From Ochrobactrum teleogrylli (GTDB taxonomy: Bacteria > Pseudomonadota > Alphaproteobacteria > Rhizobiales > Rhizobiaceae), in assembly GCF_006376685.1 (NCBI RefSeq), contig NZ_VEWL01000008.1, positions 1 to 64,000 of the forward strand: a DNA stretch of 64,000 bases, written 5' to 3'. Of this stretch, positions 35,495-36,868 are shown piece after piece. Each line of letters opens with the position of its first letter. Position 1 is the first letter of the stretch. The notes under the pieces are model-generated. The model was given only the letters and a program-made list of their open reading frames with translations, was not told the DNA's origin and did no database searches. The position numbers and the translations under genes are program-made.

Positions 35495-36868
35495 ATGAGC
35501 ACTTTGCGCATTCTCCCCAGCGCCGATATCCCTGAACTGCCGAACCGCTACAACGGCAAGGTTCGTGAGAATTACGATCTGCCGGACGGCAGCCGTATCA
35601 TCATCTCTACCGACCGGCTGAGCGCCTTCGACGTCATCCTGACATCGATCCCTTTCAAAGGTCAGGTTTTGACGCAGACCGCGTCCTATTGGTTCGAGGA
35701 AACGGCGGATATTTGCCCGAACCACGTTCTGGCTTATCCAGACCCGAATGTCGTCATTGGCAGACGGTTGGACATTCTGCCGGTTGAGGTCGTTGTGCGC
35801 GGCTATCTGGCGGGTACGACCAGCACGTCGATCCTGACGAAGTACCGCAAAGGCGAGCGCCAGATGTATGGCGTCACACTGCCCGATGGTCTGAAGGACA
35901 ATGAAAAGCTGCCGCATCCGATCATCACGCCGACAAGCAAGGCTTTCGACGGCGGACATGATGAGCCCCTTTCCGGTGAGGAAATCCTTGAACAAGGTTT
36001 GCTGACCGCAGAACAATGGGAAACCGTGTCCCGTTATGCGCTGGCGCTTTTCGAGCGTGGACAGGCGCGCGCGGCGGAACATGGATTGATCCTTGTCGAC
36101 ACCAAATACGAGTTTGGAACAGACGCAAGCGGCCGCATCATTCTCGCGGATGAAATTCATACGCCGGATTCAAGCCGGTATTGGATTGCTGACAGCTATG
36201 AAGAGAGTTTCGCTGCGGGAACCCGCCCGGCGAGCTTCGATAAGGATTTCGTGCGCGCCTGGGTCACCGAGCGTTGTGATCCCTATAACGACCCGATCCC
36301 GGAAATTCCGCTTGAACTCATCGAGCAGACCTCGAAGGTCTATATTCAGGCCTACGAACAGATCACCGGCAAGACTTTTGTGCCCGATCTGACAGGCGAG
36401 ACGGTGCTGGACCGCGTTCGCGCCAATCTCGAACCATATTTCGTGAAGAAAGCAAAACCGGCGCGCGCCAAGCCGACCACCCGTGCGCCGCGCAAGAAGG
36501 CTGAACCAAAAGCAGCTGTCGTGAAACCAGTTGCAAAGGAGGCTGCTGTTACCGCTCCGGCTGTTCGTAAGAGATACACACCAGCGGAACGGGCTGCCAT
36601 TCTTGCAGCAGTTGCGAAGGCCACCGAGAACGGCAAAGCTACGCTGAAAGCTGTATTGCAGCATGAAGGCGTCAGCGAGCAAACCTATTACAACTGGAAG
36701 AACGTTGCTGGTAAGTCCGCAGCCCAAGCGGCTATCACACCTTCTGCGGGTGACGATTTGAAAGCGCTTGTGGCGCTGGAAGCGGAAAACCTCAAGCTGC
36801 GCAAGGAATTGGCAGCAAAACTTCGAGCGGAAAATGCGGAATTGCGCAGGCGTCTCGGCAAGGCATAA
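35495..36868 (+). CDS. purC: SAICAR synthetase fused to a basic linker, HTH and coiled coil
   Basis: 457 residues. Residues 1-about 318 are a complete SAICAR synthetase of the longer, yeast-like type (YNGKVRENYDLPDGSRIIIS, STDRLSAFDV, VEVVVRGYLAGTTSTSILTK, DTKYEFGTDASGRIILADEI, DEIHTPDSSRYW), the purine step that adds aspartate to CAIR. The enzyme normally ends here. A Lys/Ala/Pro-rich linker follows (about 319-365), then a transposase-like helix-turn-helix (RYTPAERAAILAAVAKATEN ... GVSEQTYYNWKN) and a terminal coiled coil (LVALEAENLKLRKELAAKLR). The frame is continuous with no in-frame stop, and the gene ends at a strong terminator. Whether the tail binds DNA is not known. Confidence 0.88.
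   Translation: MSTLRILPSADIPELPNRYNGKVRENYDLPDGSRIIISTDRLSAFDVILTSIPFKGQVLTQTASYWFEETADICPNHVLAYPDPNVVIGRRLDILPVEVVVRGYLAGTTSTSILTKYRKGERQMYGVTLPDGLKDNEKLPHPIITPTSKAFDGGHDEPLSGEEILEQGLLTAEQWETVSRYALALFERGQARAAEHGLILVDTKYEFGTDASGRIILADEIHTPDSSRYWIADSYEESFAAGTRPASFDKDFVRAWVTERCDPYNDPIPEIPLELIEQTSKVYIQAYEQITGKTFVPDLTGETVLDRVRANLEPYFVKKAKPARAKPTTRAPRKKAEPKAAVVKPVAKEAAVTAPAVRKRYTPAERAAILAAVAKATENGKATLKAVLQHEGVSEQTYYNWKNVAGKSAAQAAITPSAGDDLKALVALEAENLKLRKELAAKLRAENAELRRRLGKA

What the first reader, a model, noticed from the sequence alone, without database searches (positions are those of the whole stretch)
35495..36868. SAICAR synthetase with a C-terminal basic linker, helix-turn-helix and coiled coil
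After a complete purine enzyme the same frame adds about 140 residues: a Lys/Ala/Pro-rich stretch, a transposase-like HTH (RYTPAERAAIL...GVSEQTYYNWKN) and a leucine/glutamate coiled coil. A metabolic enzyme carrying a DNA-binding-like tail suggests either direct regulation by purine supply or nucleoid tethering. The tail has no repair or frameshift signature and ends at a strong terminator.
Basis: partly seen in the sequence, partly recalled or inferred. Interest (0 to 1): 0.7.

Follow-up and report, generated by a model that had tools for sequence, protein, structure and literature searches.

The report
Purine enzyme fused to SyrB-like regulator
In one small branch of bacteria close to Ochrobactrum, an extra copy of a purine-making enzyme has been joined to an almost complete DNA-binding regulator of a known rhizobial type, and both halves look maintained by selection, so the enzyme may report directly on purine supply to genes.

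Summary
Window 35495-36868 (+) is one open frame of 457 codons: a SAICAR synthetase (residues 5-316), then 141 residues of basic linker, transposase-type HTH and a long helix. The tail is not an isolated oddity. It is a SyrB-like regulator lacking only its first 14-20 residues; two standalone paralogues in the same genome are 72-75% identical to it. The fusion occurs in 5 of 35 genomes of the genus, exactly those with this second PurC, with one junction. 76 of the 80 closest PurC2 loci kept end 0-3 residues after residue 316. Trees give one origin for the enzyme half (SH-aLRT 99) and probably for the tail (86/80). The enzyme half is nearest Shinella; the tail is nested among the genus's own SyrB-like genes. 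Both halves show low dN/dS. A canonical purC lies beside purS- and purQ-like ORFs, so the fused copy is an extra. Best reading: a trigger-enzyme-like chimera. Enzyme activity, DNA binding and regulation are inferred, not shown. My paper searches listed nothing on this fusion.

The parts
35428..35456 (+). promoter-like TTGACG-N17-TTAAGC upstream of purC2, similar to the stretch upstream of purC2 in Shinella and several Rhizobium
   Evidence: read by eye from 37 upstream regions; the strict sigma-70 scan found no site, so this is inference
35495..36442 (+). SAICAR synthetase (PurC2) domain, residues 1-316
   Evidence: NF009251 503 bits, PF01259 E 1.3e-70; solved PurC structures at E 4e-50 by sequence and 9e-25 by fold; 90.5% identical to a Shinella PurC2
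36443..36565 (+). basic Lys/Ala/Pro linker, residues 317-357, homologous to the linker of standalone SyrB-like paralogues from about residue 320
   Evidence: DNA alignment; composition; block pLDDT 30-39
36566..36730 (+). HTH (HTH_Tnp_1 type; helices at residues 363-377, 384-391, 395-412)
36752..36853 (+). C-terminal coiled-coil-like helix, residues 420-453
36876..36908 (+). hairpin followed by a U-rich stretch, between purC2 and the convergent next gene; probable terminator
   Evidence: z -5.3; not listed by the pattern scan

Best explanation
A chimeric gene. In the ancestor of one Ochrobactrum-like clade a second purC of Shinella type, with its own upstream region, was joined at its end to the body of a resident SyrB-like gene (a duplicate that lost its first 14-20 codons). 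SHOWN by sequence: the architecture, the homology of both halves, its confinement to one clade among the genomes searched, low dN/dS on both halves. INFERRED: the product is a working SAICAR synthetase held by a flexible basic linker to a DNA-binding, self-associating module. It works like a trigger enzyme: the coil dimerises it (or pairs it with standalone SyrB-like proteins, whose coil differs at 3 of 38 positions), the HTH binds SyrB-type sites, and the substrate or product state of the PurC domain (CAIR, ATP, aspartate, SAICAR) alters that binding, so that a set of genes responds to purine flux.
For: Fusion in 5 of 35 genus genomes, one junction. Tail 72-75% identical to own standalone proteins of 165 and 168 aa (67-68% in the gapped alignment); DNA homology runs through the stop codon. 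The two S. meliloti pSymA SyrB-like ORFs tested match the same Pfam HTH. One origin: PurC half SH-aLRT 99, tail 86/80, nested in the genus's own family. NG86 dN/dS over 10 pairs: PurC 0.02-0.07, HTH 0.04-0.19, coil 0-0.06, linker 0.09-0.28. Motifs that I know as the SAICAR synthetase active site (recalled) are invariant or nearly so in 28 PurC2 rows. A canonical purC lies beside purS/purQ-like ORFs, so the fused copy is free for another role. Precedents: trigger enzymes PutA, BirA, NadR, PepA, PyrH (PMC8249747, passages); SAICAR and AICAR as transcription signals in yeast (PMC6430606, passages).
Against: No DNA binding, target gene or ligand effect is shown. No shared 9-14-mer between the purC2 upstream region and those of the own standalone copies, so autoregulation through a SyrB site has no support. 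Flanking genes are not purine genes by my reading of the ORFs (no family search was run on them). Enzyme activity is untested. HTH dS is high (1.1-2.9 in 7 of 10 pairs), so those ratios are rough. The tail clade has moderate support (86/80). Structural matches of the tail are weak.
Confidence: 0.42

Rival explanations
1. Tether or scaffold only: the SyrB module places or oligomerises PurC2 (on the nucleoid, or in a complex with SyrB-like proteins and the divergent partner protein through the similar coil) without the state of PurC2 controlling transcription.
For: Strongly basic linker; the coil is the most constrained part of the tail (dN/dS 0-0.06) and a similar coil recurs in the divergent partner ORF and in Rhizobium ORFs that lack the HTH.
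Against: The HTH is also constrained (0.04-0.19) and keeps the SEQTYYNW core, more than a bare tether needs.
Confidence: 0.28
2. Regulator with an enzyme passenger: SyrB keeps its old regulatory job and the fusion merely puts it under the purC2 promoter; PurC2 activity does not feed into it.
For: The purC2 upstream region resembles that of Shinella, and the tail is nearly a whole SyrB-like protein.
Against: PurC dN/dS of 0.02-0.07 says that the enzyme half is itself maintained; all 5 genomes keep standalone SyrB-like copies as well.
Confidence: 0.22
3. Insertion-sequence relic: an IS3-type OrfA joined to the end of purC.
For: HTH_Tnp_1 and weak IS3/transposase hits; 28 of the 60 listed plasmid records with a SyrB-like match call the gene 'transposase'.
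Against: NCBIfam IS3 transposase model matched over 4-79 of 369 positions, 23.5 bits against a cut-off of 160; homology to standalone SyrB-like genes continues through linker, coil and stop; present in 5 genomes with low dN/dS.
Confidence: 0.03
4. Assembly or frame artefact.
For: None found.
Against: Same uninterrupted frame in five genome assemblies.
Confidence: 0.005

Closest known systems
SyrB family (S. meliloti pSymA; SyrB is described as a negative regulator of SyrM, Barnett and Long 1997 as cited in PMC9957244, passages)
   Same: Basic linker, HTH_Tnp_1 and C-terminal LE.EN..LRK.LA.KLR.EN coil; tail 50% identical over 106 residues to the pSymA ORF at 441466-442086; same Pfam HTH.
   Different: The relatives stand alone, or follow a VEYK domain in some Rhizobium-family ORFs; here the module is the C-terminus of an enzyme and lacks the MADET start. 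That these pSymA ORFs are the named syrB genes rests on recall, on position, and on PMC12542648 (one passage), which lists syrB3 as SMa0806.
PurC of the NF009251/PRK12607 type (second PurC of Shinella and other Rhizobiaceae)
   Same: 90.5% identity to a Shinella PurC2; same motifs; similar upstream region.
   Different: 76 of the 80 closest loci kept have no tail.
Trigger enzymes (PutA, BirA, NadR, PepA, PyrH)
   Same: A metabolic enzyme with DNA-binding capacity in one chain (here by homology only).
   Different: Regulation not shown here; none of the five listed in PMC8249747 (passages) is a PurC.
Methanospirillum hungatei PurC with an N-terminal radical-SAM domain (PMC3261824, passages)
   Same: A PurC fused to an unrelated domain, discussed there as possibly regulatory.
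   Different: Other domain, other end, an archaeon.
Yeast Bas1/Pho2 response to SAICAR/AICAR (PMC6430606, passages)
   Same: The product of this enzyme step acts as a transcription signal.
   Different: There the responder is a separate transcription-factor pair, not the enzyme.

Membership tests
SAICAR synthetase (PurC) | Family profile over the whole enzyme | tested here: met
   NF009251 503 bits vs 371; PF01259 238 bits vs 20
SAICAR synthetase (PurC) | Conserved motifs GKVREnY, TDRlSAFD, TPTSKA-GGHD, DTKYEFG, DEIHTPDSSRYW, SFDK.F (their role recalled) | tested here: met
   Columns invariant or nearly so in 28 PurC2 rows; aligned with the solved PurC 3r9r and 6yvq, which differ at some of these positions
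SAICAR synthetase (PurC) | Makes SAICAR from CAIR, aspartate and ATP | not testable with these tools
   needs an enzyme assay
SyrB family | HTH_Tnp_1 above the gathering score | tested here: met
   37.2 bits vs 24.1; two pSymA ORFs 43.2 and 40.7
SyrB family | C-terminal coil and basic linker shared in sequence | tested here: met
   Alignment A1, 20 rows; DNA homology through the stop
SyrB family | Standalone protein of about 150 aa with MADE-type start | tested here: not met
   Fused to PurC2; first 14-20 residues missing. It holds a SyrB-like module but is not a standalone SyrB protein
SyrB family | Represses syrM or another target | not testable with these tools
   no expression data
Trigger enzymes | Enzyme and DNA-binding domain in one chain | tested here: met
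   by homology only
Trigger enzymes | DNA binding or transcription changes with substrate | not testable with these tools
   needs binding assays
IS3 transposase OrfA | IS3 family profile | tested here: not met
   23.5 bits vs 160, 4-79 of 369 positions

The most novel reading that the evidence does not exclude
PurC2-SyrB is a purine-flux sensor: a SAICAR synthetase that is itself the ligand-sensing half of a DNA-bound regulator, and that co-assembles through its near-identical coil with standalone SyrB-like proteins, so that one clade has rewired a rhizobial regulator family to purine supply by a single gene fusion.
Probability: 0.25. Interest if true: 0.75.

Novelty: new variant of a known kind. 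Interest (0 to 1): 0.55.

Why it matters
If the regulatory reading holds, this is a recent, bounded case of how a trigger enzyme is born: the tail-less enzyme (Shinella), the standalone regulator (same genome) and the chimera can all be compared, so the effect of the fusion on each half is directly testable. It would also make a purine intermediate an input to a SyrB-like regulator, a family about which the papers listed in my searches say little beyond repression of syrM. It suggests besides that some public 'transposase' labels hide a regulator family.

Full report
WHAT IS THERE. The window lies on contig 42 of a 4.76-Mb genome; its four nearest loci in the public species set are Ochrobactrum sp. 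Q0168, isolate AFS001111, Brucella haematophila and Ochrobactrum sp. RH2CCR150. ORF 35495-36868 (+) encodes 457 aa. Residues 5-316 are a PurC of the NF009251 type (503 bits, cut-off 371), and residues 358-440 match HTH_Tnp_1 above its gathering score. AlphaFold on 28 sequences (mean pLDDT 71.9, pTM 0.63) gives a PurC fold (solved PurC chains at E 9e-25), a stretch of very low confidence at 321-357, HTH helices at 363-377, 384-391 and 395-412, and one helix at 420-453. A 33-nt hairpin and a U-rich stretch follow the stop; the tool's simple terminator scan did not list it.

THE TAIL IS A SYRB-LIKE PROTEIN. Searching the tail in the same genome found two strong further places, C42:131280-131732 (75%) and C42:175270-175635 (72%) (74% and 75% with the whole protein as query; 67-68% in a gapped alignment with longer linkers). 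Each is a standalone ORF of 165 or 168 aa that begins MADET. The DNA alignment shows that homology starts about three codons after the PurC end and runs through linker, HTH, coil and stop codon; only the first 14-20 codons of the standalone gene are missing. Beside each standalone copy is a divergent gene with its own similar coil. On S. meliloti pSymA the family is found at 441466-442086 (50% over 106 residues) and around 879868-880155; both match HTH_Tnp_1, and a third, weaker relative lies at 464350-464802 (35% over 65 residues). I call them SyrB-like from recall, position and PMC12542648 (one passage seen: syrB3 = SMa0806, 'probable transcriptional regulator'); PMC9957244 (passages seen) states that SyrB negatively regulates syrM. 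Of 78 plasmid records with a match, 60 are listed; 28 of these label the gene 'transposase', the other 32 show no name. The core alignment of 20 rows has an invariant Q-YY-W and a coil pattern LE.EN..L...LA..LR.EN..L..RL.

DISTRIBUTION. Of 35 genomes of the genus, 35 have a PurC hit and 5 have the second PurC (a sixth genome, G006, shows two matches that are neighbouring pieces of one gene). Those 5 are exactly the ones with the fusion. The own standard PurC is 254 aa and sits beside PurS- and PurQ-like ORFs (names by reading). A pattern scan of one genome for each of 84,980 species found 239 relatives and kept the best 80: 4 carry the tail (141-145 aa) and 76 end 0-3 residues after residue 316, at 77-91% identity. 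In 397 genomes of the order, 78 have an NF009251 match, 63 above cut-off; of the 22 fetched besides the window's own because their open frame was 370 or more, none extends more than 9 residues. Standalone tail relatives occur in 22 of 34 congeners at E 0.001, including all four other fused genomes.

ORIGIN. The PurC halves of the five are one group (SH-aLRT 99, 81 rows) with Shinella nearest by path. By eye, the last ~75 bases upstream resemble Shinella purC2 more than those of the other genera among 37 rows. The tail halves are one group (86/80, 41 rows; 84% of 200 bootstrap trees) nested inside the genus's own SyrB-like family. The flanking adh and hxlR genes (names by reading) match over their length only in the five, while the SDR/ABC block is shared with more congeners, without syrB-like or purC2 genes listed beside it in the 11 regions examined. 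The simplest account is that a Shinella-type purC2 with its upstream region entered this clade, or was kept there alone, and was joined once to a duplicate of a resident syrB-like gene. Entry by transfer is inferred; loss elsewhere is not excluded.

SELECTION. NG86 ratios over the 10 pairs of fused genes: PurC 0.02-0.07, linker 0.09-0.28, HTH 0.04-0.19, coil 0-0.06; in the 15-codon spacer dS could not be computed for 5 of 10 pairs. Against a clean reading: dS exceeds that of PurC (0.19-0.64) in 10 of 10 pairs for the linker (0.32-2.2) and in 8 of 10 for the HTH (0.26-2.9). This may reflect exchange with paralogues, alignment of low-complexity codons or codon bias in purC2; I could not decide. 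The tail is nonetheless not decaying.

NOVELTY. The kind (enzyme plus DNA-binding domain) is known; the combination of PurC with a SyrB-like module did not appear in the listings of the searches made, which cover open-licence papers only and, for two of them, a small part of the hits. I score interest 0.55: a well-supported, recent chimera with a sharp test, but with no functional data.

Noticed in passing
L186 (G024:C1 about 43000-43620): A standalone SyrB-like ORF of 285 aa with two tandem linker+HTH units before a single coil.
   Followed up: no
L154, L155/L178, L157/L185, L180-L182 (Rhizobium-family genomes): SyrB-like ORFs that keep linker and coil but lack the HTH; L178 and L180-L182 run in frame after a 'VEYK.GRRK..SIWGD.DLKS'-type domain that in Ochrobactrum is a separate divergent gene.
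   Followed up: partly
L114 701-1243 and L115 584-1147 (- strand): Divergent partner of the standalone SyrB-like genes, no Pfam or NCBIfam family above cut-off, ends in a coil like that of SyrB; the pair is present twice in this genome.
   Followed up: partly
window 36443-36730 against the same region in L003-L006: Synonymous divergence of the linker (10 of 10 pairs) and HTH (8 of 10 pairs) exceeds that of PurC in the same genes; cause undecided.
   Followed up: no
plasmid records H52-H111: 28 of the 60 listed records label the SyrB-like gene 'transposase', though only the HTH resembles one.
   Followed up: no
window 36930-38072: The hisC-like gene convergent with purC2 is present in three of the four other fused genomes but absent between purC2 and the SDR gene in the fourth (G024/L121).
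   Followed up: no
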